A stretch of 64,000 bases of DNA from assembly GCA_037833965.1 (NCBI GenBank), contig AP031359.1, forward strand, positions 3,220,001 through 3,284,000. Direction: 5' to 3'. The stretch is from Marchantia polymorpha subsp. ruderalis (lineage: Eukaryota > Streptophyta > Marchantiopsida > Marchantiales > Marchantiaceae). The notes under the pieces are model-generated. The model ran no database searches, was not told the DNA's origin, and was given only the letters and a program-made list of their open reading frames with translations. Shown here in pieces: positions 3,381 through 40,899 of the stretch (the stretch's first letter is position 1; each line of letters opens with the position of its first letter). Position numbers and translations under genes: made by a program.

Positions 3381-3426
3381 TCACCGAGCATGGCTGCTCG
3401 TAAAAACCCCGGTGTTGACGCAACTG

Positions 3427-3444
3427 TCCCCGGCAGCGGCGCCA
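3427..3444 (-). other. Primer-binding site, tRNA-Asp type (element A)
   Basis: The minus strand reads TGGCGCCGCTGCCGGGGA. This is complementary to the 3' end of plant tRNA-Asp(GUC), usually TCCCCGGCAACGGCGCCA, with one difference (CAG for CAA). The same variant is in elements C and D, so it is inherited. It lies 23 nt inside the LTR boundary, farther than usual. The gap holds a small inverted repeat, AAGAAG-N7-CTTCTT. Confidence 0.85.
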
Positions 3445-3564
3445 AAAAAGAAGTTGTCGGCTTCTTATGTAATAACCCACTAAAGGCTAAAACTGCAATA
3501 TAGTGGTAGAAAGGTCGAACCCACAGGGACAGAGGAACACACAGGGTACAAAGTGTCACGTTTG

Positions 3565-4024
3565 ACAGACTATTGATGAGTTTGAATTCTCAGGCGACTG
3601 TCACTCCCAGAAATACTGCAAGTGTCCACTCGGAGCGCACTCGGAGGTCGCACAGTGCAGCGTAACACACACACACACACCTGAAACTACAGAAACACAA
3701 CCCAGAGATCCGTTAGGACCTCTACTTCAAGATTTCAGGGGGAAAGTCTCCCACGAGCACACTCGGCAAAGCTGCGGGCAGTGACTTCCAACTCCGGCTT
3801 TTACAACACTTCCACTAGCTTGCTGCTAGTGTAGGGAACCCGGTTTGGACTGCCTACTTCGGATCGAAGTCACTCCTACGCGGTGAACAACACTCTCAAC
3901 TCACAAAACGCGCAGAGAACACAGGTCCGCACTGAAGGGCTCACTGAGAAACATTCCAGTAACACAACAACAGTCTATTGAAGAGTTTGAATTCTCAAGC
4001 ACTTGTCATTCCCAGAAATACTAC
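3565..4024 (-). repeat. Paired direct repeat of about 56 bp inside R/U5 (element A LTR)
   Basis: Two related blocks lie 405 bp apart, at 3565-3620 and 3970-4024. Each contains AGTTTGAATTCTCA followed by a near-identical CCCAGAAATACT. The same spacing recurs in the D 5' LTR and the solo LTR F. Element C keeps only the LTR-end copy. Confidence 0.7.
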
Positions 4025-4407
4025 AGGGGTTACCCTCAAGGCACCTGCTGCAGCGTAACCTGAATTTACAACCAAGGCTTACACGAAGTAGCAAAACTTC
4101 ACTTTGGCATTCAGGGGAAAAATCCCAAGGGAGTACAATCAGAAAGGAACACTCGAAGGTGTAGGGGCGAAACTGTTCAAGTATCTAACTAGTCACTGGC
4201 TCTGAGCATCGGCAGTCACCCACAGGTGCAGATCCGAACTACTCAAGTCTCTAACCAATGGACTAGCTCTGAACATTCGGCCGAAGGCCTTCAGCTACAA
4301 AATGCGGAACGCTAAGTTGTAACTCCTCCTGCGTGGTGACAGAACTCAAGAACACAAACACGCAAAGGAAATGGGTTCCTGATCTGCACTTCTGATGGGA
4401 AAGAACC

Positions 4408-4436
4408 CCAGGCAAAACGCCTGGAACTAATTTATA
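4408..4436 (-). promoter_or_regulatory. Putative genomic-RNA promoter: TATA box plus stem-loop (element A LTR)
   Basis: The minus strand has TATAAATTA (4436-4428), 32 bp past the LORF stop. It is followed by an inverted repeat, CCAGGC-N5-GCCTGG (4408-4424). All other LTRs here keep the pair. In them the outer base pair is A-T instead of C-G, a compensatory change that supports a real stem. The transcription start itself is not visible. Confidence 0.6.
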
Positions 4437-4467
4437 CCTTCTAAGTCCTACCTAGCACTACACTACG

Positions 4468-7356
4468 CTACACGCCTGCACGGAACCACGCTACACTACA
4501 CTCCGCGGAACCTGTACTACGTCTCCTGCGCGGCCGACTGCCGCGCACTAACTCCCTACCCTGCCAATCTTCCGCTCGACTGCGCAGTCCCAAACGCTGC
4601 AACGCCGCGGACACCTCCACTTCGAGGGCGGACATGGTATCCTGTGCCTTCGACAGAAAGGCATCGAGCTTCTTTGCTACCTTCCGCCGACTCCTACTGT
4701 CGCCTGACAACAACCCGGCTGCGCGTAATTCAAACTCACGCAGTGTGAGTTTCTCCTGCGCCTTCACCTCCCAGTGGGCGTAACCCTTGAGACAGTGGGC
4801 GACTCGCCTCGCCGTCTCCACCTTCGTGCGATCCGCCTCCTTCCTGCGATCCTCTTCAATTATCACTAATTGCGATTCGGCTTCAGCACGTTGCGCTCTC
4901 AATTCGCCACACTCTGACTGTAACCTGCGGATTAACTCTTCATCCGCCTGCCGTGCGAGCTGACATTGTTCCAACAACCGCGTCTGTCGCACGAGCTCCT
5001 CTGACAAAATCCGATTCTGGGCCTGCTCAGAAATTAGTGCTTCCTTGACCTTCACCTGCTCCTTGGTGAGCTCGTCCAGTTTCTCATCCTTCATCTTCTC
5101 GGAGTGCTTGTAGAATTTCTGATTAAGTTTGTACTGACCCCACAAGCATGCATGCTTCTCCTTCAATTCCCTCAACTCCTGGTCCACTCTAGCTAATAGC
5201 TTGCTGGTGTGGACTTTAGTGCGAGTCCGCCTGCGCACTAATTCGATGTAAGATCCCGGCTGGAGTGGGTCGGCGTATTTATCGACCTTGCGATCTAAGT
5301 ACCTCAGCAACGGAATCACCTGCTCAGAGAGCGCCGCCGCCGGCGCTCCAACAATTTCCTCCTCCTCTTCCTCGGTGTCTTCTGCTCCTGACATTTCTTC
5401 CGTGGAGCCCCCGTCGTCATCATCCGAGTGGAGAATTTCAGTCGCCATTGATTGCGTCGGCGACTGCCCCGAGTGGGGCTGCACGTTGTCGACGTGTGCT
5501 GCCTGCGAAGGCACGGCTGCAGCCTCGCTGCTCGTCGCCAAAATGTCCAAGGCGGAAGGCGAATGTACCCGTGCGGCATCCCCGTCGCTCGCTTGTTGGT
5601 TGTCTACCGCGTCCTCTCTGCCGCCGTCGCCCGCCGCCGAAGGCGATCGAGCGGAGGGTGGCTGCGCGGGGTTTGATTGCGCATCGCGCATCGAAATTTC
5701 ATCCCGCGGACAGTCACTCCGCTCCTCCGTTTGTTGCTGATCCCTTGATCGGTCCGTGGGGGCTGTGTTTGGCCCGTGCGCAGGCGCAATTGCCGGCGCC
5801 TTGTCCGCCGCAGACGTAGCGCCGCGGACATCCATCGCCGAAGGCGACATGGCCGGGGGCCGCTCGCCCGATGTCCCTTGGCCTATAGGCCCTACCGCCG
5901 AAGGCGCAACTATCGGCGGACTTCCCGCCGATGGTGCGGCCTCCGCACGCGCCCTGCTCGTATCTCCTCGGCTCGAAGGCCCTGGCGCCGAAGGCGCAAA
6001 TTGCGGCGCGTGGTGCGCCGGAGGGTCTGGCCCCGAGGGCCGGTGTCTCGTAGGCGGTTCTTCCGCCGGCTCCTTCCCCTTCCTACGTTGGAACGGGGGT
6101 GATTCTTGCCTGTGCACAGGCGGCACGTGTGGAGGTGTCCTGTGCACAGGCGACCTGTGCACAGGTGAGCGCCTGTGCACAGGCGGACTGCTCCTTCCCA
6201 CGCGTAAGCGTAGATCCACGTCCACTTGTGTTCGCCGGTCCGCGGAGGCTCGTCCGTCCGCGGAGGCTCGTCTGTGCGCAAACGGAACATCTGTCCGCAT
6301 CGCACGTGGTAACTCCGGAGGCCCTTGGCCCGTAGGCGGCCTCTCTCCCGACGAGGTTGCAGCGGGGCCCGTTGCTCCTGCGGTCGTCCGCGCTTCCTCA
6401 TGCTTCTCTGGCGACGCACTTCCTTTCTCCGTCGCAATCGTCGCCGTGTCCGCACTGTCGGCTGGTAACACCAGTCTGCGTGCCTTCTGCTTCGGCCGGC
6501 TGTATGGCTCGCACAGCGGCCGCGGTCGAATGGGAGCAGAGGGTTCTTGATGCTGCTCCTCTTCAGACTCTTCCCTCCATCGCCGCTTCCGCGGCACTCG
6601 TGCTGCAGGAGTGTGTCTCCCTTCGTCCCTCCGTCTTGATGGGGTAGAAGTCGGTGACTCCTCTGCATCAGTGTCGACCTCATTCTCCCGCACATACTTC
6701 CCGGGATGGTCAATGGACAATGGCGGAAAATGTTCAAGCTCCGCCGCTGTCAAACAATTCCGCTGTCGATAAAAATTGATGAGGAAAGAAGAGAGATGGT
6801 TTAGAGTTCCCCCCTTCTCCTCAAACGCGTGCTGTCGCATCACCCTGTGCAGGATGCTCGCCCAGTGAATTGGAGTTCCCTCGATGACGCACTCCACAAA
6901 AGAGACCTGCCACAATGTGATGTAGCAGGCGCGGTGCGGCTGCAGTAATTGCATCAGCGCCGCGGACAAAGTCCGGCGAAATCGATCCTTGTAATCACGG
7001 GTCCTGTACCCATTCTTGGTAGACCTCCCGGTCTTGAACAGCTCCACAAATTGCGCCTCTTCCTGCTTGGTCACCTTGATGCTCTCACTGTCGAAAAGGA
7101 GATGCCCTGGCATGCCAGCACATCTTCCCAACGCCTGCGCCCAATCTTGGACTGTCCATCGATCAACATGCGGACGCAATCCGCGCGAGGGTGGTCCCTG
7201 TGGCTCTAGCCACTCGCGCACCATATTCGCACAGATGTAGTTCCATCCCCATAGCAAGAAATCGAGCTTTCTTGCTATTAAGCGCTCCTCGAAAGCGCGC
7301 AGCCCGTTCTGTGGTAGGCGAAGTGGCACCATCCGCAATCTGCTCGGTCTCGTCAT
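4468..7356 (-). CDS. LORF of element A: LTR-encoded protein, intact (962 aa), unknown function
   Basis: I do not recognise this protein. The ATG at 7356 (MTRPSRL) is chosen because an ATG in a GCAATG context sits at the same place in every other copy. The open frame extends upstream to 7572 only from a TTG. The first 240 residues or so form a conserved domain with LDFLLWGWNY, RTRDYKDRFRR and HLSSFLINFYRQ. A long Pro/Ser/Arg linker follows, with VHRSPVHR and PSA repeats encoded by short palindromes and basic patches such as PRKRRW. The C-terminal half starts at ALSEQVIPLLRYLDRKVDKY, continues as a long heptad-rich coiled coil and ends in a conserved helical tail (LRAAGLLSGDSRSRRKVAKK). No signal peptide or membrane segment is seen, so it is not env-like. 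It lies wholly within the LTR. Confidence 0.82.
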   Translation of the reverse strand: MTRPSRLRMVPLRLPQNGLRAFEERLIARKLDFLLWGWNYICANMVREWLEPQGPPSRGLRPHVDRWTVQDWAQALGRCAGMPGHLLFDSESIKVTKQEEAQFVELFKTGRSTKNGYRTRDYKDRFRRTLSAALMQLLQPHRACYITLWQVSFVECVIEGTPIHWASILHRVMRQHAFEEKGGTLNHLSSFLINFYRQRNCLTAAELEHFPPLSIDHPGKYVRENEVDTDAEESPTSTPSRRRDEGRHTPAARVPRKRRWREESEEEQHQEPSAPIRPRPLCEPYSRPKQKARRLVLPADSADTATIATEKGSASPEKHEEARTTAGATGPAATSSGERPPTGQGPPELPRAMRTDVPFAHRRASADGRASADRRTQVDVDLRLRVGRSSPPVHRRSPVHRSPVHRTPPHVPPVHRQESPPFQRRKGKEPAEEPPTRHRPSGPDPPAHHAPQFAPSAPGPSSRGDTSRARAEAAPSAGSPPIVAPSAVGPIGQGTSGERPPAMSPSAMDVRGATSAADKAPAIAPAHGPNTAPTDRSRDQQQTEERSDCPRDEISMRDAQSNPAQPPSARSPSAAGDGGREDAVDNQQASDGDAARVHSPSALDILATSSEAAAVPSQAAHVDNVQPHSGQSPTQSMATEILHSDDDDGGSTEEMSGAEDTEEEEEEIVGAPAAALSEQVIPLLRYLDRKVDKYADPLQPGSYIELVRRRTRTKVHTSKLLARVDQELRELKEKHACLWGQYKLNQKFYKHSEKMKDEKLDELTKEQVKVKEALISEQAQNRILSEELVRQTRLLEQCQLARQADEELIRRLQSECGELRAQRAEAESQLVIIEEDRRKEADRTKVETARRVAHCLKGYAHWEVKAQEKLTLREFELRAAGLLSGDSRSRRKVAKKLDAFLSKAQDTMSALEVEVSAALQRLGLRSRAEDWQGRELVRGSRPRRRRSTGSAECSVAWFRAGV

Positions 7357-8855
7357 TGCGTTCCTGGAGTTCGCTCGCCCGCTCATTCTACTTCCGCACC
7401 GCCCGAGCGCCTTTCTCTCTCGGCAAACTCTAATCGCCCTCAATTCCAAATCACGCGCATTCACTTCTCCCTCAATCAACAAGAAATCTCCTGTGCGGCG
7501 ACGTCGAGAATGTTCAGCAGCCAGCAGATGGATGCGCGCAGCGCGCACAAGAGATTGGAATCGCGAATTCAAGAATGGGACGTTCTCCGCCGCCCGGTCG
7601 AAGGTCCAGGTCGGCTCTTGCTCGTGAAGAACGTCTCACTTGATGGCCGCGCCGGCTGTACGCTGGAACGGTCTTTGCTCTCACGCGCGGCTTCACGCTC
7701 CGCCGTCGTCGATTAAACTCTCACGCTCGAATTGGCGGATTTGAACTCCGCGAGCGTATTACCCCGCGGACATGGGGGCGTAGCGCCGAAGGCGAGTTTT
7801 CCGCCTTGCGCGGTACACTTGTTCGTACCGCCCCTCGGCCAATCCCCCTCTGCCTTGACGCGTGTGTCCGCATGTCGGACAAAAGTTCAACTCCTGCCTG
7901 TGCGCAGGCAGGAGCCTCGGCGGATGCTCCGCCGGTGCGGAACTTGAACATCCTCCTGTGCACAGGCGTTCGCCTGTGCGCAGGCGAATTCCGTGCGCGG
8001 CGTCGCGCTGGCGCGGAAGGCGTTGACCGTGGTCAGCCGTCTCCGTCCAGTCTGTCCGTTCCTTGTCTCTTCGTCGGCGCTTCCGCCGCCGCAACTCCGT
8101 CCGTCCAAGAGCGCATCTACCCGTGCCGTCCGCATGGTCCGTACCGATTTGATTACTCTGGCGGCTCTTCCGCCGTACGCGGCGCGGTGCTGGCGCGGAA
8201 GGCGCCGTACACTTTCTACCTCACAAGGCGCATTTCTAGGGCCCAAGGCGGATTTTCCGCCGACGCCGAAGCGCCTGTGCACAGGCGAGCGCCTGTGCGT
8301 AGGCGGACTTCGCGCCTCCCCTAACCCTACTTTGCCTGTGCACAGGCGAACGCCTTCGTCCGCGCATAGGACAAAACTTGATTCCCCCTTCCGCGTAGGC
8401 GGAATTCGCGCCGGTGGCGAACTCTTTCCGCCGTAGGCGACCGCCTCCGTTTCTTCCAATAAAGATAACTCCCTAAGTCCTCATCCGTTCCCAGCGTTCT
8501 TGGACTCGTTGGAATCAGTGCGTCGAGCTCTTTCCAACGGAACCCTAACTTGGTCAAGGCGCCCGAGGGTTGACCTAATTATGGAGGGTTTCCCTACAGC
8601 CGCGGACGCAACCTCCGAAGGCGGGTTTTGCGCCTTGCGTCGTAGGGGTCCTAACTGCAGAGCTCGCAGGGAGGGTGGTGCCTGTCCTTACTGCTGCACC
8701 CCAAATCCCAGATTCCACAAGATCCCTCGAGAATCCCCGCGATCTTCCGGATTCACTCCGTTTTGATGTACCGAAGGCTATTTACAATGCTGCCAAGGTA
8801 CAGTTTTCCAAAAATGTTTTAATTTCCTCAAAATTGCCAAAAGTGGGGTACCACA

Positions 8856-11894: not shown

Positions 11895-12791
11895 TGTAAT
11901 AACCCACCAAAGGCTAAAACTGCAGTATGGTGGTAAAAAGATCGAACCCACAGGGACAGAGGCAACACACAGAGTAAAAGTGTCACGTTTAACAGACTTT
12001 TGGTAGAGTTTGAATTCTAGGCAACTGTCACTCCCAGAAATACTGTAGTGCTCGACTCGGAGGCTCGACTCGGAGGAGGAACTCAACTCGGAGGATGCTC
12101 GGAGGATGCACGGTACAGCTTGGTCACTCAACACACACACACACACACCTGAAACTGGCAAAAAAGCACAACTCGGAGGTCGGTCAGGACCTCCGCTTCG
12201 GATTTCAGGAGGAAAGTGTCTCGTAAGTTCACTCAGAGGTTCTGCAGGAAGTGCCTCCCACTCCGGCTTTTACTGCCCTTCCGCCAGGAACTAGCGGGGG
12301 TACCCGGACTGGACTTCTCACTTCGGAACGAAGCCTCTACGTACGCCGTGGACGTCACCCTCGACTATCACACAAAACGCAGGGAGTGCAGACCCGACTG
12401 AGAACTTACTGAAAACACGATCCAGTAACACACACACAACCTGAATTACAAACCAAGGTTTACACGAAGTAATGAAACTTCACATTGGCATTCAGGGGAA
12501 ACTTCCCGTAGGAGTACAATCAGGATATGTCACTCGAAGGAGTAAGGGGGAACTGTTCAAGTCTCTAACTCGCAGCCGGCTCTGAGCATCAGAAATCACC
12601 CGCAGGTGCAGATCCGCACTACTCAAGTCTCTAACCGGGTGCGAGCTCTGAACATTCAGCCGAAGGCCTTCAACTACAACATACGGTAACTTCGCTATGC
12701 TGCAGCTTCTCTACGTGGTGCCAGGACCAAAATGCACAAACACGCCAAGAAAGTGAGTTCCTGATCTGCACTTCCGAAACTGGAAGAGTCC

Positions 12792-12820
12792 CAAGGCAAA
12801 ACGCCTTGATCTACTTTATA
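12792..12820 (-). promoter_or_regulatory. Putative genomic-RNA promoter: TATAAAGTAG plus stem-loop (C 3' LTR)
   Basis: TATAAAGTAG (minus, 12820-12811) lies 33 bp past the LORF stop. It is followed by CAAGGC-AAAAC-GCCTTG (12792-12808, plus strand). The pair is identical in the other C LTR and conserved in A, D, X, E2 and F. It would put LORF in U3 and leave about 890 bp for R plus U5. Confidence 0.6.
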
Positions 12821-12853
12821 CTCTCAAAAGATCCTAACTAGCACTACGCTATC

Positions 12854-15409
12854 CTATCTACCACTCGCAGCATCTGCGCGAAACCAAACTACTCTACTGC
12901 ACTCAGCAGATCCGGTGCTGCGCCTCCTGCGCGCCGGACTGCTCCGCGTACTATCTCTACCCTGCCAGTCTTCCGACCGGCTGCGTAACCCCAGGCGTCG
13001 GAGCGCTGCAGTGACTTCCGACTGCAAGTGCGCCATAGTGTCGCGCGCACCCGACAGAAAAGTTTCTAATTTCCTTGCCACTCGCCGCCGACTCCGACTG
13101 TCACCTTCCGTCAATGCCGCCGCCCGAAGCTCGAACTCCCGGAGTGTAACCCTCTCTTGAGCTGCCACCTCCCAATGGGTGTATCCGTTTAGACAACGAG
13201 TCACCCGTGCCGCCAACTCTCCTCGTGCCCTGCTGCTGCTCTCCACCTCTGCCAGCTGCATTTCTAAATCCGCACGTTGTGTCCTCAAATCCGAGCACTC
13301 GGTTTGCAAGTTGCACAACAACTCCTCATCCTCCTTGCGGGCTCGTTGACTTTCCTCTAAGGCGCGCGTCTGGCGCGCAAGCTCGGCTGCTAGGACTTCG
13401 TTCTGTCTCCGCTCCTCCTGCAGTTCCGACTCGATCCTTGCCCGTATTAGTTCGGCCTCCGCCTGACTCTTCGTCGCCGCATCCTCCTTCTGCTGCTGCA
13501 AGGCTTGGTACAGCTTCTGGGTGACCGCCAGGTGTTGTCGGAGGGCGGTGTTCCTATCCACATATACTCCGCATCTAGAGGCCCACTTTGCCACCTTGCT
13601 CCTCGTCCTTCGCCTGATTGTCTCCACATAAGACTGCGGTTTTAAGGCACTTCCGTATTTGGATGTCTTGCGATCCAGATATCGCAGGAGTGGAACTATC
13701 TGTTCGCACAGCACCCCTGTTGGCGTTTTCTGCACTGACTCCTCTTCTTGCTCTTCCGAGCTCGTATCATCCTCAGTCGCGAGGATTTCAGTCGCCACCG
13801 AATCCCTTGGCGACTCCCTGGAACTGTTGCGCGCAGCAGCTTCTGCTGCGACTGCTGCTCCACTGCCTGCTAAAATATCCAGGGCAGTGGGAGATCCCAC
13901 TGCTTGAGCCCCTGTTCCGGCTCGATCTTCGGTTTGTGAAGGGGTCGACGCCGTAGTGACTTTTGTCACTCTTGCACCGCCCGCTTCTGCTGCCTGTCCT
14001 TCCGGCGCAATCTGCGCGGAAGGTGTCCTTGCTGAAGGTGCGTCCGCCGAAGGCGTCCGCACACTGGTCGTTGGCCCCATCCGTCTTGCAGTCGGCGAAT
14101 CCGGCTGACTCTCTGTTGTCCGACTCGCAGTCGGCCGGCCAGCAGTTGTCCGACTGGGAGTCGGATACACCCTGCGCGTCTTGACTCCACTTGGCCTACT
14201 TGTTGGTGGCGTTCTTCCAGAAGTGCCTTCCGCCGAAGACGACCCTCTGAGGATTGTTGGCTCGTCAGCCAAACTCTCTCCCGCTTCCGGCCTGCTGTCC
14301 GGTTCAACGCGCCGTTCAGTTGGCCTTCCTTCCGTCTGTCGACCTTCAGTCATCCGACTCGCAGTCGGCCGGTCGTCAGTCCGTCCATCTCCTCCCGAAG
14401 GCCGTGGTGCCTTCTGTGCAGAGGTTTCTGCCGTCTTCCCTAGAACCTGAGTGATTATCTCTTCCTGTGTGAGATTCCGCCGGGTCGGAGTTCGCCTGGT
14501 CTCCTCAGTAACAGTTGGCATTCTGCGTGCCCTCTGTTTTGGTCGACTATGAGGCTCGGGGGTGGGCCGACCACGAGTCGGCGCAGCTGGTACTTCCGGC
14601 TGCCTGTCCTCAGGTCTCTCATCCCACTTCCGCTTGCGCGGAATGCGCTCACTTCGACGTTCTTCTGCTGCTCTGGCTGGAGCCGGAGCCGGAGGCGTAC
14701 TGGCAAGTTCCTCGTCCGGATCCGTGTCTACTTCGGCCTCCCTCGAATATCTACCTGGATAAGACCGGCTCAGCTGCGGAAACCGAGTTTTCTCAGCATT
14801 CGTCAAACATCCCATCGCCCGGTAAAACACGATTAAGTAAGGCGATAGATGATTGAGCGTTCCTCCCCTCTCTTCTTGCGCATGTTGGCGCGTCACCTTC
14901 CACAGAAGTCGTGCCCAATGCACCGGAGCTCCTGACAACACTAGCTCCACGAACTCTACCTGCCAACCATGCATGTAAGCGGTCTTGGTCGGCTGCAATA
15001 TCTGCAGCAATGCTGTCGCGACATTTCTCCGCAATCGATCCTTGTAATCCCGAGTCCGGAAACCGTTCTTGGGATGTCTAGCCACCTTGAAGAGCTCATT
15101 GTAAGAGACTTCTTCCTCTTGGGACACTTTCACGCTGTCGGCCTCGAAGAGGAGATCCCCTTCCTCGCCGGCACACCTGCCCAACACCTGCGCCCAATTG
15201 CCAATTTCCCATCTCTCTGGGTGTGGGCGAAATCCGCGAGAAGGCTTGTGTCTCTCTTGCAGATACTCGCGCACCATCTCCGGACACGTCCAATTCCACC
15301 CCCATAGGAGAAAATCGAGCTTCAACCTCAACAGCACATCTTGAAATGCGCGTAGACCGATCTGCGGCACCCTGAGTGGAGACACTCGCAGCTGGGGAAC
15401 CTTCGACAT
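12854..15409 (-). CDS. LORF of element C, 3' LTR copy, intact (851 aa), unknown function
   Basis: Function is not recognised. The start is ATG 15409 (MSKVPQLRVSPLRV), conserved in position across copies. An upstream open stretch to 15694 begins only at TTG. Residues 10-235: conserved globular-looking domain (LKLDFLLWGWNWTC, FRTRDYKDRLRR, LNHLSPYLIVFYR). Residues about 240-560: charged Pro/Ser/Thr/Arg linker with the basic motifs PRKRKW and RPKQRARR and repeated TASRTTES/TASRMTEG units. SPTALDIL and VATEIL islands come next, then LCEQIVPLLRYLDRK, a coiled coil of about 150 residues, and the tail FELRAA...GDSRSRRRVARK. Basic motifs suggest nuclear or nucleic-acid contact, by inference only. In the genomic RNA this copy would follow pol. 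Confidence 0.85.
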   Translation of the reverse strand: MSKVPQLRVSPLRVPQIGLRAFQDVLLRLKLDFLLWGWNWTCPEMVREYLQERHKPSRGFRPHPERWEIGNWAQVLGRCAGEEGDLLFEADSVKVSQEEEVSYNELFKVARHPKNGFRTRDYKDRLRRNVATALLQILQPTKTAYMHGWQVEFVELVLSGAPVHWARLLWKVTRQHAQEERGGTLNHLSPYLIVFYRAMGCLTNAEKTRFPQLSRSYPGRYSREAEVDTDPDEELASTPPAPAPARAAEERRSERIPRKRKWDERPEDRQPEVPAAPTRGRPTPEPHSRPKQRARRMPTVTEETRRTPTRRNLTQEEIITQVLGKTAETSAQKAPRPSGGDGRTDDRPTASRMTEGRQTEGRPTERRVEPDSRPEAGESLADEPTILRGSSSAEGTSGRTPPTSRPSGVKTRRVYPTPSRTTAGRPTASRTTESQPDSPTARRMGPTTSVRTPSADAPSARTPSAQIAPEGQAAEAGGARVTKVTTASTPSQTEDRAGTGAQAVGSPTALDILAGSGAAVAAEAAARNSSRESPRDSVATEILATEDDTSSEEQEEESVQKTPTGVLCEQIVPLLRYLDRKTSKYGSALKPQSYVETIRRRTRSKVAKWASRCGVYVDRNTALRQHLAVTQKLYQALQQQKEDAATKSQAEAELIRARIESELQEERRQNEVLAAELARQTRALEESQRARKEDEELLCNLQTECSDLRTQRADLEMQLAEVESSSRARGELAARVTRCLNGYTHWEVAAQERVTLREFELRAAALTEGDSRSRRRVARKLETFLSGARDTMAHLQSEVTAALRRLGLRSRSEDWQGRDSTRSSPARRRRSTGSAECSRVVWFRADAASGR
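14120..14368. repeat. Short palindromes CCGACT-NNN-AGTCGG in the LORF linker of element C
   Basis: Copies at 14120-14134 (CGC loop), 14150-14164 (GGG loop) and 14354-14368 (CGC loop) each have 6-bp arms and a 3-nt loop. They encode much of the repeated ASRTTE/ASRMTE linker peptide. Identical copies lie 10,641 bp downstream. The A and D linkers instead carry GCCTGTGCACAGGC-type and CGCC-GAA-GGCG palindromes. Confidence 0.75.
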
Positions 15410-16291
15410 TGCGTTGCCTGCACACACACAAACGTTCTCCCTTTCGCTCGCTCTCTCACAATCGCCGCTGCGCGTCGGCCACTCAAGCACTGACTGCTCA
15501 CTCTCTCTACGCTCGTTCGAGATCGCTACTCCAATTCTTTCAAGGTCCGCCAAGATCCTTGCGCAACTCGTCTCCGCACTCTCTACTCTCACTGCAGGTC
15601 GCTCCGCCCTTGCGCGTAATCTTGGAACTGGAAATCGCAAAGTCAAGAATGAGAGAATGAGACTGGAGCGCAGTCTTTTCTTCTCCGATTTCAAGAACGT
15701 CCAACGTTCTTACTGGTTGCAACGTACGCAGCCGGCTATACGGCTTAACGGTTCGCCCTTTGCATGCGCGAATTCACGTCTCCGCCTTGCGCGCATTCGC
15801 ATGCTTAAACGTTGAATTCTCCCGCCGCCGCCACCTTCCGGACTCGAGTCCGCTGTAGGGTATACGTCGGCCCTGTTGTCTTTTCCTAACCCGCCCTTCT
15901 CCGGAGGCGTGTTGCCGCTGGTGCGTTCATTATCCGTCGGCGCCTTGCTGGAGGCGCACATCCAGCCGGAGCGAATTACGCCGGCGCGCAGTCGTACCGC
16001 CTATTTTGTCCTTTATGCCTCGTCCGTTGCTGCCAGCGCATCCGGCCGTCAGCGCCACGTCGGAGGCGTACATCTGACCGGCGCTTTCCTTCCATGAACA
16101 GCCGCCAAGGGCGCTTCCGACTCTGAGTTGGTTTCCTCCTGTGAGCGCGTGATTCCGCCGAAGGCGCATCGCCGAGGGCGTACGGGAATTCTTTCCGGCT
16201 GTGAACCCTAGCGCGAACGGCGCATGTCCGGCTACGAGTTTTCCGACGCTCATAACTTCTCCATTCCTGATCCATCTCCGGCGCTCTTGGA

Positions 16292-16305
16292 CTCGTTAGA
16301 ACGAG
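16292..16305. promoter_or_regulatory. Conserved U3 dyad CTCGTTAGAACGAG
   Basis: A 6-bp inverted repeat with a 2-nt centre in the C 3' LTR U3. The F solo LTR extends it to GCTCGTTAGAACGAGC (54376-54391). Degenerate versions occur at the same U3 position in A, B, D, E, H and, weakly, in divergent element G. It could be a transcription-factor site; no function can be read from sequence. Confidence 0.45.
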
Positions 16306-16736
16306 CGTCCCGAGCTCTGTCTAATGCAACTTCCACCAACTGGATCTACCGTGTATCCCGATTGTTATGAAGGTTTTCCCTTTCCGCGCTAGCGGCGCTT
16401 CGCCGAAGGCGCACTCATGGTCGGATGCCTTTAGAGGTCCGGGCCCTTCCCCTGACGTCTTTAGCACAACCTCCTCCTGAGGTGTCTGCGCCGGAAGCGT
16501 AGCTTCCTTATACGCTAGAGGCGCGTGAGTAGAGACACCTCAAAAAGGAGCTTTTGCCGAAGGCGCCGAAGACGTTGGCGTTGGTACATCCGACTACGTG
16601 ATTCTTTGTGCCCTCGTGACGATCTCATCAATCCACTCTATTTAGCGTACCCTTCTCTAGCTACAAACACTGCTTTGGTACTATTTTTCTAAAATTGTTT
16701 AAATTCTGCAAAAAAAACAAAAAGCGTGTTACCACA

Positions 16737-16748
16737 TGCCCCCCTCCT
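16737..16748 (-). other. Polypurine tract (element C)
   Basis: AGGAGGGGGGCA on the minus strand directly abuts the 3' LTR start TGTGGTAACACGC. It is identical in B and nearly so in D. Confidence 0.85.
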
Positions 16749-16773
16749 CAATTGTGAGCGCCCACGCGAACAT

Positions 16774-19614
16774 TTACACGTGGTATTTCTTCAGACGCCA
16801 TCCGTTCACGCGGGTGCCTAACCATTCTCCCGTCAGTTCTGCGAGTTGGATGGATCCATTTGGAAAAACTTCTATCACCTTGTAAGGTCCCATCCACCTC
16901 AAGTGGAGCTTGCCTGGAAATCTAGCATGTCTGCTATCGTATAGCAGAGCCAAATCGCCCTTCTCCAGCAGTACTGGTTTGAGCCTTCGATCGTACTTCT
17001 CTTTCCGCCTGAGTTGTAATTGCTTTGTCCGATCTTCGGCCTCTTGACGTCTTTCCTCCAGTGCCATTACCTCTTGCAGTCTATATGCCTGACTTTCTTC
17101 CGCGTCCAGCCTTCTCTGATCTAAGGTCCTCTTGGTAGGTATCTCGAATTCGATGGGTAAGATCGGATGTTGCCCATAAACTAGGAAGTAAGGTGTTTGC
17201 CTGGTGGTGACTTTTTCTGCCGTTCTATATGCCCATAAGGCGGCCGGTAGCTTGGTGTCCCAGTCATGAGCATGGTTTACAGTCACCTTGAGGAGTATCT
17301 TACAGAGTAATCCATTGGACTTCTCTGTCAGACCATTAGCCTTGGGGTTGTATGGAGTAGTCTTCCGATGCTTAATCTGGAAGTGCCGCGTCAAACTTTC
17401 TATCACCTGATTCAGAAAGTGCGTCCCTCTGTCACTGACTATTTCTAGGGGGCACCCGTAGCGTGTGATGATGGATTCGAATAGGAACCGTGCTACTGCG
17501 GCTGCGTCATCGTGCCTTGTGGCTTCTGCCTCCACCATCTTGGTCGCATAGTCTGTTGCTACCAATATGTAGCGCCTGCGCGTGCCTTTAGTGACAGGTT
17601 GTATTGGTCCCACGAAGTCGATCCCCCATTTTTCAAATGGTGCTAATGGCATGATTGGTGTAAGAGGCCATCTCGTGGTCGGAGTCGGCCTTCCCGTCCT
17701 CTGGCAGCTGTCGCATTTGCGAATGTAGTCGTGTACATCTTTGAACATCGTCGGCCACCAGTATCCTGCATTTACAATTTTGGTCACTGTGTTTCTGGTG
17801 GCGTAGTGACCACCAGCGTCTTCTGTGTGCATGGCTTTGACAACTCGCGGTACTTCAGACTCCTCTAGACATCTGCACAACCTCTCGTCTGCCATTTTCT
17901 TGAACAAGACCCCCTGTTGAAGCTGGTAAGGTCCCGCTTTATGAACGAAGACTGTGCGCTGCTCCGCATCCAATCCTTCCGGACATTGTAGTGTGAGCAG
18001 AAACCTGTATAAGTCCGCGTACCTGGACTCATGGCTGGCGGACAACTGAAAAAGCTGTTCGTCGGGAAAATCATCCACTACTTCCTCCTCTATGGTTTCG
18101 GTCCATAGTCGGGAGAGGTAGTCCGCGTTCTCATGGTGAACGCCTTTCCGTGTCTGTACAGTGTAGGTGAATTCCTGCAGCAGTAGCACCCACCTGGCAA
18201 TTCGTCCGGACAGATCCGCCTTCTTCACCAGGTGCTGTAAGGCGTAATGATCTACATGAAACACGAACTCATAGCAGATCAAATAATGTCGGAACTTCTT
18301 ACAGGAGTACACCATTCCCAACGCCTCCCTCTCAGTTGTCGTGTACTTCTTCTCTGCTGCTGACAACTGACGACTCGCGAAGTAAATCGGGTAGTCTTTC
18401 TTGTTGTCGTCCTTCTGACTGAGAACCACCCCGATTGCAAACGCCGACGTGTCTACATAGACATGGAAAGATCTGTTCCAATCCGGACTTCTCAGAACCG
18501 GAGCAGTCGTCAGTTTGGCCTTGAGCGTTTCAAAGGCCAGCTGTTGCTCCTTGCCCCACACATAGGGTTCATCCTTCTTAAGCAGCTTTGTCAGATCGGC
18601 TGCCAAGATGGCATACATATTTATGAATCTTCTGTAATAACCTACATGGCCAAGGAAGGCCCTCAACTCACGCAGATTCGTTGGCGGCTGCAGTTCGAGA
18701 ATAATCTTCACCTTCTCTACATCCACTGCAATGCCATCGGACGAAACTCGGTGCCCCAGCAGGATTCCGCTGGTCATGAAGAAAAAACATTTCTCAGGGT
18801 GTAAGGACAAGCTGCTTTCCCTACACCTGTCGAACGTTTGCCGAAGATGGTTAAGGTGCTCCGACCTCTTACCGAAGACACAAAAGTCGTCGATGAAAAT
18901 TTCTAGGAACTTCCTCAGGTGCTCTTGGAAGATGTTTGTCATCATCCGCTGGAACGTCGCTGGCGCGTTGCACAGACCGAACGGCATCTTGTGATAAGCA
19001 TAGGTTCCCCAGTCGGTTGTGAAGGTTGTTTTGTCCTTGTCCTGTTCCCTGATGGACACCTGGTTGTAGCCGGAAAATCCGTCTAGGAAACTGTAGCATT
19101 CATGCCCTGCTACATGGTCCAGAATAGAGTCCGTGAAAGGAAGAGGGTGATGGTCCTTCCGCGTTGCTGCGTTCAGCTTCCTGAAGTCCTGACACACCCG
19201 GATCTTACCCGTCAGTTTCTTGGGCACGATCACGATAGGCGACACCCACTCGCTACTGAGTACCGGGTAGATGATTCCTGCGCTCAGGTACTTATCGATT
19301 TCGTCCTTCACCAATAATGAATATTTTGGGTTGAGCCTGTATTGGTGTTGGCGAACCGGAACTGCCTCGTCCAACAAGTCGATCCTGTGCTCTCCATACC
19401 TTGCAGGTATGCCTTTCATGTCTTCAATCCTCCATGCGAAGACATCCTCATATTGGCGAAGAAACGCCTGTACCCTGTTCAACTCTTCTCCTTGTACCTG
19501 GCTTGACACCTTCAAGCTTTTACCTGGACTGAGCTGCAGTTCGCAGCAATCACTCGGGTCAACAATCCCCTCTGTGTGACTGATCTCGCTTCTGCCCAGT
19601 CCGGCTGCTAGTTG
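16774..19614 (-). CDS. pol: Element C Pol: reverse transcriptase, RNase H, integrase (intact)
   Basis: It copies the element RNA into DNA and integrates it. The frame is continuous with gag after the UAG at 19615-19617; numbering here starts at the residue encoded at 19515 (913 residues onward). RT: LDG with catalytic D145 and FIDDF (D209, D210), the Phe form of YxDD seen in Ogre/Tat/Athila-type elements. RNase H: D355, E395, D422, D465. Integrase: zinc site H563, H570, C601, C604; catalytic D633, D695 and E731, with 35 residues between the last two. The C-terminus (VNGWRLKKYHV) has no chromodomain, and about 90 residues between RNase H and the zinc site leave no room for a second RNase H. 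The stop lies 25 bp from the polypurine tract. Confidence 0.95.
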   Translation of the reverse strand, partial: QLAAGLGRSEISHTEGIVDPSDCCELQLSPGKSLKVSSQVQGEELNRVQAFLRQYEDVFAWRIEDMKGIPARYGEHRIDLLDEAVPVRQHQYRLNPKYSLLVKDEIDKYLSAGIIYPVLSSEWVSPIVIVPKKLTGKIRVCQDFRKLNAATRKDHHPLPFTDSILDHVAGHECYSFLDGFSGYNQVSIREQDKDKTTFTTDWGTYAYHKMPFGLCNAPATFQRMMTNIFQEHLRKFLEIFIDDFCVFGKRSEHLNHLRQTFDRCRESSLSLHPEKCFFFMTSGILLGHRVSSDGIAVDVEKVKIILELQPPTNLRELRAFLGHVGYYRRFINMYAILAADLTKLLKKDEPYVWGKEQQLAFETLKAKLTTAPVLRSPDWNRSFHVYVDTSAFAIGVVLSQKDDNKKDYPIYFASRQLSAAEKKYTTTEREALGMVYSCKKFRHYLICYEFVFHVDHYALQHLVKKADLSGRIARWVLLLQEFTYTVQTRKGVHHENADYLSRLWTETIEEEVVDDFPDEQLFQLSASHESRYADLYRFLLTLQCPEGLDAEQRTVFVHKAGPYQLQQGVLFKKMADERLCRCLEESEVPRVVKAMHTEDAGGHYATRNTVTKIVNAGYWWPTMFKDVHDYIRKCDSCQRTGRPTPTTRWPLTPIMPLAPFEKWGIDFVGPIQPVTKGTRRRYILVATDYATKMVEAEATRHDDAAAVARFLFESIITRYGCPLEIVSDRGTHFLNQVIESLTRHFQIKHRKTTPYNPKANGLTEKSNGLLCKILLKVTVNHAHDWDTKLPAALWAYRTAEKVTTRQTPYFLVYGQHPILPIEFEIPTKRTLDQRRLDAEESQAYRLQEVMALEERRQEAEDRTKQLQLRRKEKYDRRLKPVLLEKGDLALLYDSRHARFPGKLHLRWMGPYKVIEVFPNGSIQLAELTGEWLGTRVNGWRLKKYHV

Positions 19615-19617
19615 CTA
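19609..19617 (-). promoter_or_regulatory. Leaky stop context UAG CAA CUA (element C)
   Basis: The gag stop TAG (19617-19615) is followed by CAA and CTA in the same open frame as pol. This fits UAG CAR YYA. Element C has CUA where A has UUA; both obey the YYA rule. Confidence 0.8.
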
Positions 19618-22452
19618 TTCCTCATCCGGATACACCTCGTCTCCTTCCTCCTCAATGGAGCAGCAAGTGACGTAGCCCACAAAGTCTTCCGACGTTTCGG
19701 TCTCTGAAGTGCATGATGAGCTGGTCTCCCCTCCGGTTGTGTAACCGGAGGTGGTGGAAGGTGTTTCGCCTTCATGAGGTACCTTGGTCCACGGTACGGT
19801 AATGACAGTCGGAGGGTCAGCAGGGCTACGGAACTGTAATCTCTTCCTACTCCAGTCACACCTTGCTTTGGCATCGTATAGCCAAGGTCTGCCAAGCAGC
19901 ACATCATAACCTTTCTTCATCAGAGGTTGCAGTATTATGTAGGACAGTTGAAAGTCCACTCCTCCAATGTTGGTTCTCACATTGCTCAACATTCCTAGTG
20001 GCATTCTGCGTGTTTGATCGGCCAGTCGCAATACTCGGGATGTAGGCTCGAAGGTCTGGAATCCCAAGGAGTTCGCTGTCTCCTCGGTCATGATATTCAC
20101 GCCCGAGCCGGAGTCCACTGGTACCTTCTGAATGACACAACCTCCGATCTCTACTTCGATCTCTGGAGGTCCCAGGTCTCCCCCTTCCACTCTGTACACA
20201 TCCGGAAGTTTCTCTTTTCGGGGTTTGCGTGGTCTGCGCAACGAAAGCATCAGCATCCTCCTGTACGTCTTATTGTCTTCCAACAACTGGTGGAAGGAAA
20301 TATTTGCCCTCTGGCTCCCCATGTCTTTCACTATGTCGTAGGGAGTGTTGGAAGTCACGGCCGGAAGTTTCCCTGTACTCGCGGTCGGAAGGGGTGTAGG
20401 GGGCCTAACCGCCTTCCGGTCGTCGGATGTCATTCCGGCGTTCAGTGCTTCCTTGATGAGGTGACTCACCTCATCTTTGATGTCCGGAAGGTAATCTCGA
20501 GTCCGGAACTCTTCTGAATACCTGTCCGCCTTTTCTGAGTTCTGCTCCGGCTGGGTGTTTCTCATAGCCGGAGGTGTACCCGGCCTTCTCCTCGGGCCTT
20601 CTCTAACTTCTTTAGACTTCCTCCTCTCTTCCCTACGCTCGAGGCGGCGAGTGTCCTCGTGGCCTTCTCCTTTCCTCCTCGAACTTCGGGTTTCTACCCG
20701 ACCGCACATTACTTCTTCCTCTGGCCATACTTCGTTTTCTTCAGCTGGGTCCAGACTCAGTTCTACCTGGTTGACCTGCACTTCTTCCTTGCCAGGTGTT
20801 GCTACGAAACGCACGGTTGGCCTAGGGATTGGTGGCTGGTCACATTCAGCTGCTGTATGTCCGGACTTCTTGCAATTGCTGCACAATGGTGCATACCCCA
20901 TTGGCCTCCTCGGGTGGGGACAACTTGGCGCGTAATGCCCCATGTCTCCGCAGTTGTAGCAACCATCGAATTGTGCTCGAGGTCGGTTATTTCCTGTGTG
21001 ATTTCCTGGAGGTGCCATGCGTCTTGGTGGGAGTGTACCCGCCATTTCCCTTGGAACAAAGCGCGGTATATGCACCGGTGGGTTCGGAGTTGTAGCTGGA
21101 GCTGTCTGTACCGAGTAGGCGGTGTCCTCAACCTGCTCAGCATAATACATAGGCGGCTCAGCATAATACATGGGGGTCTCCCACTGTGGTGCCCATTCGA
21201 CCGCATTCACTGGGTAAGATGGCCTCGCGGACATGCACTCCGTGTTGGCATGTCCCACCTGTCCGCACGTAGTACACCAGAGATTTGCTCGTTGTCTCGC
21301 AGGTGATTTACGTCGGTCTTGGCCTCCCACTACATGAACTTTCAGGTCCGCAAAATTCTTCACCAGGTTGTCTACCTTGGCTGCGATGTCCCCTTGAGTC
21401 TTCACTGGGATTCCCTTACCTCGATCCTTCTTCTTGATCGCACTGCGTTTCTTCTTCCGTCTTTCTTCTTCTGAAGATGACGAGTCCTCTTCCTCCTCCG
21501 AGGAAGAACTTGATTCGGAGGAGCTTGATTCTTCTGTCGAGGAAGGCGAGTTCCTTCTCTTCCGACGTCCGCCTTGCGACTTCTTCTTCGTCGACCGTCG
21601 GTCGCGTCTTCGAGTGTCAAGGGTTGACGTCTCAAAGGTCTCCGCGGAAGCTATCACATCTTGGATTGTGTCAGTCTTGCCTCTCCTACAGAAGGTCTCC
21701 ATTTCTCTTGAGAGCCCCGTCACATACCAATCCACTGCCTGTTGTACCGAATACGGTTCTCCCGGGCCTGTCTTCGGAATTCGATCTAGGAGGTCTTGGA
21801 ATCTCTCCGTGTAGTCTCGAAGATTCTCCTTCCGCTCGCGTCGAAGATTTCGAAGCCGGGTCAGAACTCGACTGTCGTATCCGAGTTCGCGGAACCGCTT
21901 CAGAAACTTTTCCTTGAGCTGAGCCCAGGTCCGGATGCCAGTGGGGTCGGTGCTCTCATGGTTGTACCAGCTACGCGCTCGTCTGCGTAGCAGGCTAGGA
22001 AAGATTCGTAATCTGTCTTCATCACTGGTCTCACGATTGGCGATGGAGACAGACTCGAAGAGCTTTATGTATGAATCTGCATCATCGTCGTCGCCCGTTC
22101 CCGTGTATCTTGGATACGAATGTTTGGTGGTAGGTTGGGGAAACACCTGGCGGAGATTGGCTTGATGTTCTGCCATCGGTGATCCTGTCGACGGACTGAT
22201 CCTAGGTTGGCCAAACTCAGGAAGAGTTCCCGTCGGAGGGATGTCCAATAGAACTGTTAGCTCAATGCTCTCGGTAGGTGAACTGGAACGCCTTTGTCTT
22301 CCAGTAGTCGGTGATGGCGATCTTTCTGCAGAGTCCTCACTGGGAGTCTTCTTTTTAGTTCGCCGTTTTGTTTCCACGGCTTTTTCTGAATCTCGACGGA
22401 GTTTCCGTGTGGCTCTCGCACTCAGGTTTCCCACACTATCGCTCGTCGACAT
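19615..22452 (-). CDS. gag: Element C Gag-protease polyprotein, intact (945 aa)
   Basis: Structural precursor plus protease. ATG at 22452 (MSTSDSVGNL). Residues about 107-270 form the retrotransposon Gag core (SWYNHESTDP, FLKRFRELGYDS, QAVDWYVTGLSREMETFCRR). Residues about 303-330 are a Ser/Glu tract next to KKKRSAIKKK. CCHC knuckles are at 393-406, 498-511 and 524-537. The aspartic protease has D-S-G at 780-782 (VDSGSGVNIM) and YDVLLGRPWL at 849-858, with an acidic tail to YPDEE. The protease is inside the abundant gag product, so readthrough is needed only for RT, RNase H and integrase. The stop is the leaky UAG. Confidence 0.95.
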   Translation of the reverse strand: MSTSDSVGNLSARATRKLRRDSEKAVETKRRTKKKTPSEDSAERSPSPTTGRQRRSSSPTESIELTVLLDIPPTGTLPEFGQPRISPSTGSPMAEHQANLRQVFPQPTTKHSYPRYTGTGDDDDADSYIKLFESVSIANRETSDEDRLRIFPSLLRRRARSWYNHESTDPTGIRTWAQLKEKFLKRFRELGYDSRVLTRLRNLRRERKENLRDYTERFQDLLDRIPKTGPGEPYSVQQAVDWYVTGLSREMETFCRRGKTDTIQDVIASAETFETSTLDTRRRDRRSTKKKSQGGRRKRRNSPSSTEESSSSESSSSSEEEEDSSSSEEERRKKKRSAIKKKDRGKGIPVKTQGDIAAKVDNLVKNFADLKVHVVGGQDRRKSPARQRANLWCTTCGQVGHANTECMSARPSYPVNAVEWAPQWETPMYYAEPPMYYAEQVEDTAYSVQTAPATTPNPPVHIPRFVPREMAGTLPPRRMAPPGNHTGNNRPRAQFDGCYNCGDMGHYAPSCPHPRRPMGYAPLCSNCKKSGHTAAECDQPPIPRPTVRFVATPGKEEVQVNQVELSLDPAEENEVWPEEEVMCGRVETRSSRRKGEGHEDTRRLERREERRKSKEVREGPRRRPGTPPAMRNTQPEQNSEKADRYSEEFRTRDYLPDIKDEVSHLIKEALNAGMTSDDRKAVRPPTPLPTASTGKLPAVTSNTPYDIVKDMGSQRANISFHQLLEDNKTYRRMLMLSLRRPRKPRKEKLPDVYRVEGGDLGPPEIEVEIGGCVIQKVPVDSGSGVNIMTEETANSLGFQTFEPTSRVLRLADQTRRMPLGMLSNVRTNIGGVDFQLSYIILQPLMKKGYDVLLGRPWLYDAKARCDWSRKRLQFRSPADPPTVITVPWTKVPHEGETPSTTSGYTTGGETSSSCTSETETSEDFVGYVTCCSIEEEGDEVYPDEE

Positions 22453-22495
22453 TCACCGAGCATTGCTGCTCAAGGTTTCTGGTGTTGACGCACTG

Positions 22496-22513
22496 TCCCC
22501 GGCAGCGGCGCCA
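22496..22513 (-). other. Primer-binding site, tRNA-Asp type (element C)
   Basis: TGGCGCCGCTGCCGGGGA on the minus strand, 22 nt inside the LTR end. The LTR end is fixed by the target duplication, so the gap is real and not an annotation error. Confidence 0.88.
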
Positions 22514-23432
22514 AAAAGAAGTTGTCGGCTCCTTATGTAATAACCCACCAAAGGCTAAAACTGCAGTATGGTGGTAAAAAGATCGAACCCACAGGGACAG
22601 AGGCAACACACAGAGTAAAAGTGTCACGTTTAACAGACTTTTGGTAGAGTTTGAATTCTAGGCAACTGTCACTCCCAGAAATACTGTAGTGCTCGACTCG
22701 GAGGCTCGACTCGGAGGAGGAACTCAACTCGGAGGATGCTCGGAGGATGCACGGTACAGCTTGGTCACTCAACACACACACACACACACCTGAAACTGGC
22801 AAAAAAGCACAACTCGGAGGTCGGTCAGGACCTCCGCTTCGGATTTCAGGAGGAAAGTGTCTCGTAAGTTCACTCAGAGGTTCTGCAGGAAGTGCCTCCC
22901 ACTCCGGCTTTTACTGCCCTTCCGCCAGGAACTAGCGGGGGTACCCGGACTGGACTTCTCACTTCGGAACGAAGCCTCTACGTACGCCGTGGACGTCACC
23001 CTCGACTATCACACAAAACGCAGGGAGTGCAGACCCGACTGAGAACTTACTGAAAACACGATCCAGTAACACACACACAACCTGAATTACAAACCAAGGT
23101 TTACACGAAGTAATGAAACTTCACATTGGCATTCAGGGGAAACTTCCCGTAGGAGTACAATCAGGATATGTCACTCGAAGGAGTAAGGGGGAACTGTTCA
23201 AGTCTCTAACTCGCAGCCGGCTCTGAGCATCAGAAATCACCCGCAGGTGCAGATCCGCACTACTCAAGTCTCTAACCGGGTGCGAGCTCTGAACATTCAG
23301 CCGAAGGCCTTCAACTACAACATACGGTAACTTCGCTATGCTGCAGCTTCTCTACGTGGTGCCAGGACCAAAATGCACAAACACGCCAAGAAAGTGAGTT
23401 CCTGATCTGCACTTCCGAAACTGGAAGAGTCC

Positions 23433-23461
23433 CAAGGCAAAACGCCTTGATCTACTTTATA
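23433..23461 (-). promoter_or_regulatory. Putative genomic-RNA promoter: TATAAAGTAG plus stem-loop (C 5' LTR)
   Basis: Second copy of the TATA/stem-loop pair, TATA at 23461-23452 and inverted repeat at 23433-23449. This 5' LTR copy is the one positioned to drive gag-pol. Confidence 0.6.
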
Positions 23462-23494
23462 CTCTCAAAAGATCCTAACTAGCACTACGCTATC

Positions 23495-33594: not shown

Positions 33595-33599
33595 GCGCC

Positions 33600-40896: not shown

Positions 40897-40899
40897 CTA
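40891..40899 (-). promoter_or_regulatory. Leaky stop context UAG CAA UUA (element D)
   Basis: TAG (40899-40897) CAA TTA, identical to element A although D has decayed elsewhere. Confidence 0.75.

What the first reader, a model, noticed from the sequence alone, without database searches (positions are those of the whole stretch)
12854..15409. A large, conserved third gene (LORF) lies entirely inside the LTR
Seen: an intact ORF of 851 codons in both C LTRs and 962 codons in the A LTR, always sense to its own LTR, with decayed versions in D (both LTRs), X, E2, F and H. The N-terminal domain and coiled-coil half are recognisably the same protein across clearly diverged LTRs, with a conserved ATG and tail. 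Known: LTRs are usually noncoding, and related elements place extra ORFs between LTR and gag or between pol and LTR. Inference: a selected accessory protein, possibly DNA- or capsid-related. It is not env-like, since no signal or membrane segments are seen.
Basis: partly seen in the sequence, partly recalled or inferred. Interest (0 to 1): 0.9.

Follow-up and report, generated by a model that had tools for sequence, protein, structure and literature searches.

The report
Selected gene inside retrotransposon LTR
A family of jumping genes in a liverwort carries an extra, evolutionarily protected protein gene inside the repeated end sequences that normally hold only switches, so each jump leaves two copies of it; the protein probably acts in the nucleus on the element's own repeats, but that is untested.

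Summary
Confirmed. The window lies in a Marchantia (liverwort) genome. Element C is a Ty3/gypsy retrotransposon with identical 4842-bp LTRs (TG...CA, 5-bp target duplication). The 851-codon ORF lies wholly inside each LTR. Of 53 scored genomic copies, 46 form LTR-spaced pairs, and 8 of 9 fetched pairs have matching target duplications, so the boundaries are right. The protein is under purifying selection: omega against one diverged intact copy is 0.14 (N-domain), 0.49 (middle) and 0.23 (C-terminal part); within family A the N-domain has 3 replacement against 37 silent changes. A TATA box follows the ORF in 8 of 8 tested window ends and 50 of 50 loci, so the ORF is probably in U3 with the gag-pol promoter just downstream. 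No membrane segment, a conserved basic cluster, and no relative outside Marchantia found. The LTRs carry dispersed short motifs, one of them family-specific. Best reading: an LTR-encoded nuclear accessory protein, placed like MMTV sag, probably acting on its own LTR as VANC proteins do. That function is inferred, not shown.

The parts
22536..27377 (-). Element C 5' LTR (4842 bp)
   Evidence: 100% identical to 11895-16736; TG..CA; target duplication GTGTT
11895..16736 (-). Element C 3' LTR (4842 bp)
   Evidence: as above
12854..15409 (-). LORF in the C 3' LTR, 851 codons: N-domain (about residues 1-235), variable repeat-rich middle (236-600), C-terminal part with coiled-coil-like stretch (601-836), short tail
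   Evidence: selection
23495..26050 (-). LORF in the C 5' LTR, identical copy
12815..12820 (-). TATAAA, the only TATA[AT]A of LTR C, 33 nt after the LORF stop codon (3' LTR copy)
23456..23461 (-). Same TATA box in the 5' LTR: likely promoter of genomic RNA (inferred)
   Evidence: LTRs identical
22495..22513 (-). Primer-binding site-like sequence TGGCGCCGCTGCCGGGGAC, 22 nt after the 5' LTR (tRNA-Asp-like, from recall)
   Evidence: sequence
16737..16750 (-). Polypurine tract TGAGGAGGGGGGCA directly before the 3' LTR, upstream of the LORF
   Evidence: same 14 nt in 9 of 9 pairs
19615..22452 (-). gag with capsid, zinc knuckles and a protease-like match just below its cut-off; ends in UAG CAA CUA
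16774..19614 (-). pol (RT, RNase H, integrase), same frame as gag after one UAG
3468..8855 (-). Element A 5' LTR (about 5.4 kb)
   Evidence: ends by homology and TG..CA; partner LTR is outside the window and not verified
4468..7356 (-). LORF of element A, 962 codons from the aligned ATG
4431..4436 (-). TATAAA after LORF A, aligned with that of C
33795..36583 (-). Decayed LORF in the D 3' LTR
44829..47027 (-). Decayed LORF in the D 5' LTR
   Evidence: the two D LTRs are 97.9% identical over the 2048 columns aligned
32276..33598 (-). LORF fragment X
50807..53374 (-). Decayed LORF F
55483..56538 (-). Decayed LORF E2
61838..63999 (+). Decayed LORF H, on the plus strand, runs off the window

Best explanation
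LORF is a functional third protein of these Marchantia Ty3/gypsy elements, encoded in the U3 part of the LTR. Shown: it is inside the LTR, selected as protein, and followed at once by the LTR's single TATA box. Inferred: genomic RNA starts just after the LORF, so it reads R-U5-gag-pol-U3(LORF)-R. LORF then lies where env or an extra 3' ORF would lie, but because the polypurine tract is upstream of it, reverse transcription copies it into both LTRs. Inferred function: a nuclear, coiled-coil (probably dimeric) factor that acts on its own LTR, through dispersed short palindromic motifs, to keep the element transcribed against silencing, in the way VANC proteins serve VANDAL transposons. LORF mRNA could come from a TATA-less promoter in the 1.3-kb stretch upstream of it or from a spliced genomic RNA; this is not settled.
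For: In LTR: matching target duplications in 8 of 9 pairs; 46 of 53 copies in pairs. Selected: C against L052 (the one intact frame of four diverged loci fetched) omega 0.139 (N), 0.487 (middle), 0.225 (C-terminal), likelihood ratios against omega = 1 of 80.0, 19.5 and 55.3; family A, 19 intact loci of 30: N-domain 3 replacement to 37 silent. TATA box: 8 of 8 tested window ends (two are the identical C copies; E2 and H have no end to test) and 50 of 50 loci; the only TATA[AT]A in the stretch scanned (1300 nt before the ATG to 950 nt after the ORF) in 49 of 50 and in the whole C and A LTRs. PKQ(K/R)AR in 3 of 3 LORFs, RKR(K/R)W in 2 of 3, no TM segment in 3 of 3. Motifs: CGCCTTCGGC 52 times in the window, by strand and position all sense to the surrounding LTR; its 8-mer core is outside the gag/pol stretches listed in 80 of 81 cases; GCCTGTGCACAGGC 8821 times genome-wide against 0 for the reversed control, present in family A loci, 0 in 20 C loci. 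Conserved blocks with a variable, repeat-rich part resemble VANC as described in passages of PMC5735166.
Against: No expression, localisation or binding data. No sequence relation to VANC domains or any DNA-binding family. The motifs also lie inside the LORF's own coding middle, where they may simply encode the PSA and PVHR repeats. The near-strict sense orientation of CCTTCGGC is not expected of a simple duplex binding site; it is not perfect either (two 8-mers by position antisense; mean 0.13-0.20 antisense per A locus upstream and downstream of the ORF). Genome-wide motif counts probably mostly reflect LTR copy number. The structure models failed. Transcription start is inferred from the TATA box alone. 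Whether L052 itself lies in an LTR was not checked.
Confidence: 0.45

Rival explanations
1. LORF is a virion or capsid accessory protein (Gag-like, assembly or nucleic-acid chaperone) rather than a regulator.
For: Mostly helical N-domain in low-confidence models and a C-terminal coiled-coil-like part (weak coiled-coil matches).
Against: No profile relation to the element's own gag (hhalign probability 0.2%; a weak test, 7 and 2 sequences); gag already carries capsid and zinc knuckles; LORF has a conserved basic, NLS-like cluster.
Confidence: 0.2
2. LORF is an envelope-like 3' gene, as proposed for Athila or SIRE extra ORFs.
For: Position after pol on the inferred RNA.
Against: No membrane segment in three intact LORFs; Athila ORF-1 or other env-like models are not among the 20 Pfam families listed for 16 members.
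Confidence: 0.04
3. LORF is a captured host gene or passenger that helps the host or nothing, kept by recent amplification only.
For: Young family C with 0-2 LTR substitutions in 9 of 9 tested pairs, so intact frames alone prove little; no relative outside Marchantia was found.
Against: Low omega against a copy with dS about 0.6 and low pN/pS within family A need protein-level selection over many transpositions.
Confidence: 0.12
4. LTR boundaries are wrong, or the ORF is an open-by-chance frame in GC-rich repeats.
For: The middle region is repeat-rich and tolerates change (omega 0.49).
Against: Target duplications and paired LTRs; longest random stop-free run 379 codons in 300 trials; changes by codon position 6/0/34 in the N-domain of intact A copies.
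Confidence: 0.01

Closest known systems
MMTV sag (LTR-encoded superantigen)
   Same: A selected accessory gene inside the LTR (sag is called LTR-encoded in passages of PMC11998498; its U3 position and presence in both LTRs are from recall).
   Different: Sag is a type II transmembrane protein (PMC11998498, passages) acting on the host immune system; LORF has no TM segment. No sequence comparison with Sag was made. Host is a plant.
Extra ORFs (eORF/aORF) of plant OTA elements (Ogre, Tat/Retand, Athila)
   Same: Non-chromovirus Ty3/gypsy elements, many with extra ORFs and LTRs up to about 5 kb (PMC6317226, passages).
   Different: PMC11963269 (passage) puts such ORFs in the internal region; [quoted passage not shown] Domains named there (PF10536, PF04195, PF03078) are not among the Pfam families listed for LORF at E 10.
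VANC anti-silencing proteins of Arabidopsis VANDAL DNA transposons
   Same: TE-encoded; conserved domains with variable, repeat-associated parts; short motifs accumulated in the element and differing between families (PMC5735166, passages).
   Different: VANDALs are DNA transposons; VANC carries DUF1985/DUF287, not found in LORF; VANC motifs lie in non-coding DNA as tandem repeats, here also in the coding middle; no binding or demethylation shown.
[not shown]
   Same: Liverwort gypsy elements without additional RNase H, reported from both Marchantia genomes studied (PMC10508981, passages).
   Different: No LTR ORF is mentioned in the passages read; membership of our elements was not tested by phylogeny.

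Membership tests
Ty3/gypsy LTR retrotransposon (element C) | RT, RNase H, integrase in that order, with gag and zinc knuckle | tested here: met
   Pfam hits in gag and pol; protease match just below its cut-off
Ty3/gypsy LTR retrotransposon (element C) | Paired LTRs with TG..CA, target duplication, PBS, polypurine tract | tested here: met
   the tRNA identity of the PBS is from recall
OTA / Tat lineage | RT/INT phylogeny within Tat/Athila | not tested
   only circumstantial: long LTRs, 5-bp TSD; no chromodomain in the Pfam hits of pol
OTA extra-ORF families (PF10536, PF04195, PF03078) | Match to the Pfam domain | tested here: not met
   none among the 20 families listed at E 10 for 16 members; HMMER filters drop most weak matches, and I did not check that each model is in the library copy
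MMTV sag-like LTR gene | ORF wholly in the LTR, upstream of the LTR promoter | tested here: met
   promoter judged by TATA box, transcription start not measured
MMTV sag | Transmembrane protein | tested here: not met
   max 19-residue hydropathy 1.23 or less in three LORFs
VANC anti-silencing protein | DUF1985 / DUF287 domains | tested here: not met
   neither among the Pfam families listed at E 10
VANC anti-silencing protein | Family-specific motif arrays in the element | tested here: inconclusive
   motifs present and one family-specific but also inside the ORF
VANC anti-silencing protein | Sequence-specific binding and loss of DNA methylation | not testable with these tools
   needs experiment
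env-like protein | Membrane segments | tested here: not met
   hydropathy scan of three LORFs; signal peptides were not scanned apart

The most novel reading that the evidence does not exclude
A retrotransposon whose LTR is a self-contained regulatory cassette: it encodes a nuclear factor in U3, directly upstream of the promoter, together with palindromic target motifs that change with the family, so that every insertion and every solo LTR is a portable gene for the element's own sequence-specific anti-silencer.
Probability: 0.3. Interest if true: 0.9.

Novelty: new variant of a known kind. Interest (0 to 1): 0.76.

Why it matters
Plant LTRs are usually treated as non-coding. Here a long protein gene under selection lives inside them, which makes the LTR, and so each solo LTR, a gene-bearing unit. 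It offers a plant counterpart, by position, of MMTV sag and a concrete candidate for a retrotransposon-encoded regulator in a tractable liverwort. It also matters for annotation: M. polymorpha gene sets list LORF pieces as hypothetical proteins (for example Mp_8g15400 and AXG93 models).

Tried and rejected
Structure: two AlphaFold runs on the N-domain (36 and 23 rows) gave mean pLDDT 41.2 and 42.6, so no fold search was made. A gag origin of the N-domain was tested and not supported. Splice acceptor at the LTR start (T-run then TGCAG in C): not conserved in A or in a related copy at 10366, so set aside. Family A polymorphism: the count was wrong because some loci were misaligned or misoriented and was replaced (a script error, gave nothing); the density for the LTR tail (0.51) still looks like an alignment artefact and is not used. 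One search also failed by script error and was replaced. Of four diverged loci fetched, L051, L053 and L054 had longest frames of 531, 646 and 165 codons and were dropped from the between-family test; only L052 was used, and its LTR status could not be checked. C against A over the whole ORF, its middle and its C-terminal part, and gag of C against A, have saturated silent sites. The species was not settled: one M. polymorpha LORF model matches at best 62%, another is 95% identical over 499 aa.

Literature: searches showed me no report of a selected ORF inside a plant LTR; judged from listings and abstract starts, plus passages of PMC6317226, PMC11963269, PMC10508981, PMC10714607, PMC5735166 and PMC11998498. 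Subscription papers are mostly not held, and no supplementary file was read.

Full report
Where this is. The window is G000:C1:3220001-3284000 of a 241-Mb genome in 9 contigs. The 14 proteins found with the ORF's N-terminal part are all Marchantia polymorpha hypothetical proteins. A profile search gave 98 more; every one with a name is M. polymorpha, the rest are unnamed. The organism is taken to be a Marchantia; which species was not settled.

The element. On the minus strand, element C has a 5' LTR at 27377-22536 and a 3' LTR at 16736-11895, 4842 bp each and identical. It begins TG, ends CA and is flanked by GTGTT on both sides. The internal part is only 5799 bp: 83 nt from LTR to gag ATG, gag, pol, 37 nt from pol stop to the 3' LTR. 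Pfam shows capsid, two zinc knuckles and a protease-like match just below cut-off in gag, and RT, RNase H and integrase in pol. Element C sits in another element's pol, whose halves resume on either side.

The ORF is inside the LTR. It spans LTR positions 1328-3883. Genome-wide, 53 family C copies were scored of 13345 first-look candidates, listed at 99-100% identity, 52 without stops. Of these, 46 form 23 same-strand pairs 10582-10684 bp apart, which is one LTR-to-LTR step; 7 are unpaired in the list. For the nine pairs whose sequence was fetched, LTRs differ by 0-2 substitutions and 0-2 indels, and 8 of 9 have the same 5 bp at both outer ends. The ninth has two different flanks, each shared with another element on the same contig, as after recombination between them. 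Wrong LTR boundaries are thus excluded for C. For A the LTR ends fit by homology and same-strand pairs about 11.2 kb apart occur elsewhere, but the partner of the window's own copy was not seen.

Selection. C was compared with L052, an intact 853-codon LORF (G000:C5:29015330-29017950; 75.5% identical), the only intact one of four diverged loci fetched; whether it lies in an LTR was not checked. Maximum-likelihood omega is 0.29 overall, 0.139 in the N-domain, 0.487 in the middle and 0.225 in the C-terminal part, with likelihood ratios against omega = 1 of 134.8, 80.0, 19.5 and 55.3. Between C and A silent sites are near saturation; the N-domain gives 0.12, and L052 against A 0.195. Gag of C against A gives 0.03, also saturated. 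Within family A, 30 loci were fetched of 47 scored; 20 have no stop and 19 were used (one of different length, 15 bp longer, left out). The N-domain then has 3 replacement and 37 silent changes (pN/pS 0.024), the middle 0.284, the C-terminal part 0.177; with all 30 loci the values are 0.073, 0.352 and 0.229. Choosing stop-free copies favours low values, which is why both sets are given. Within family C, 20 loci give 9 distinct ORFs with 19 replacement and 17 silent changes (ratio 0.37; N-domain 1 to 3), a small sample. N-domain of A against the decayed D copy gives 0.18, and the other pairs involving decayed copies 0.19-0.30. Selection at protein level is therefore shown; it is weaker in the repeat-rich middle.

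Place in the transcript. The C and A LTRs have one TATA[AT]A each. In C it lies 33 nt after the LORF stop codon, and in A it aligns with that of C. A TATAA lies 23-52 nt after the end of LORF homology in 8 of 8 tested window ends (two are the identical C copies; E2 and H have no end to test) and within 60 nt of the stop in 50 of 50 fetched loci, where it is the only TATA[AT]A of the stretch scanned in 49. The LTR part after the LORF is 72-74% alike between A and C, while the 1.3-1.5 kb upstream of the LORF gave no A-to-C match at the cut-off used (E 1e-20, 250 columns). I infer that the genomic RNA starts just after the LORF, that LORF is a U3 gene, and that its position is that of a 3' accessory gene swallowed by the LTR because the polypurine tract lies upstream of it. 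How LORF mRNA is made is open.

The protein. Among 16 members, Pfam at E 10 lists 20 families, best Extensin_1 (1.9e-4, one member) and CENP-K (0.0018, two members); I take these as low-complexity and coiled-coil matches. NCBIfam gives only E 0.12 or worse. PDB by sequence gives none at E 1 for the whole protein and two at E about 1 for the N-domain profile. Three intact LORFs have no membrane segment; PKQ(K/R)AR is in 3 of 3 and RKR(K/R)W in 2 of 3. Two AlphaFold runs failed. A distant member, P0011 (34-45% identical), keeps N-domain and C-terminal part, so the architecture looks old within Marchantia. The search with the C-terminal part found three proteins, one being Mp_8g15400, a 499-residue M. 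polymorpha model 95% identical to C residues 353-851. Only the 7993 candidates sharing most words were scored there, and all these searches need shared exact words, so absence elsewhere is not proven.

Motifs. CGCCTTCGGC occurs 52 times in the window, 45 on the minus and 7 on the plus strand, the plus ones in and before the plus-strand LORF H; I judged orientation by strand and position, not copy by copy. Its neighbour GCCTTCGGCG and the core CCTTCGGC have one exception on each strand. The core is outside gag/pol in 80 of 81 cases, over about 20 kb of gag/pol stretches listed. GCGCCTTCGGCG occurs 11786 times in the genome against 646 for the reversed control. The palindrome GCCTGTGCACAGGC occurs 8821 times against 0; it averages 1.67 upstream of and 1.73 inside the LORF in 30 A loci and is absent from 20 C loci. 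Much of this is probably LTR copy number. The notable points are that non-coding and coding parts of the LTR share the same short motifs and that the palindrome is family-specific. VANC proteins show a similar picture: conserved domains with variable, repeat-associated parts, and family-specific target motifs (PMC5735166, passages). This is the ground for the anti-silencing hypothesis, which remains an inference.

Comparison. PMC11963269 (passage) places additional ORFs in the internal region. [quoted passage not shown] MMTV sag is the closest by position (PMC11998498, passages). I found no report of a selected ORF inside a plant LTR in searches. I class it as a new variant of a known kind: an accessory gene of an LTR retrotransposon in a place not reported for plants in what I could search.

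Noticed in passing
19609-19617 (C), 540-548 (A), 28727-28735 (B), 40891-40899 (D): gag ends in UAG CAA YUA in 4 of 4 elements looked at, and in C pol continues in the same frame: the context recalled as the TMV-type leaky stop, suggesting readthrough for gag-pol.
   Followed up: partly
31574: The 5' LTR of the element split by C appears reduced to its first 13 bases, joined to the leader.
   Followed up: no
G000 genome-wide: A 14-bp palindrome GCCTGTGCACAGGC is present 8821 times with no copy of its reversed control.
   Followed up: partly
P0113 and AXG93 gene models: LORF pieces are annotated as hypothetical proteins in M. polymorpha; some AXG93 models lie a few gene numbers apart on one contig, as LTR pairs might.
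   Followed up: partly
L006/L013: One family C pair has different 5-bp flanks, each shared with another element on the same contig, as expected after recombination between elements.
   Followed up: no
16736 and 27377 (LTR start): In C the LTR begins with a long T-run and TGCAG, a good-looking splice acceptor, not conserved in A.
   Followed up: partly
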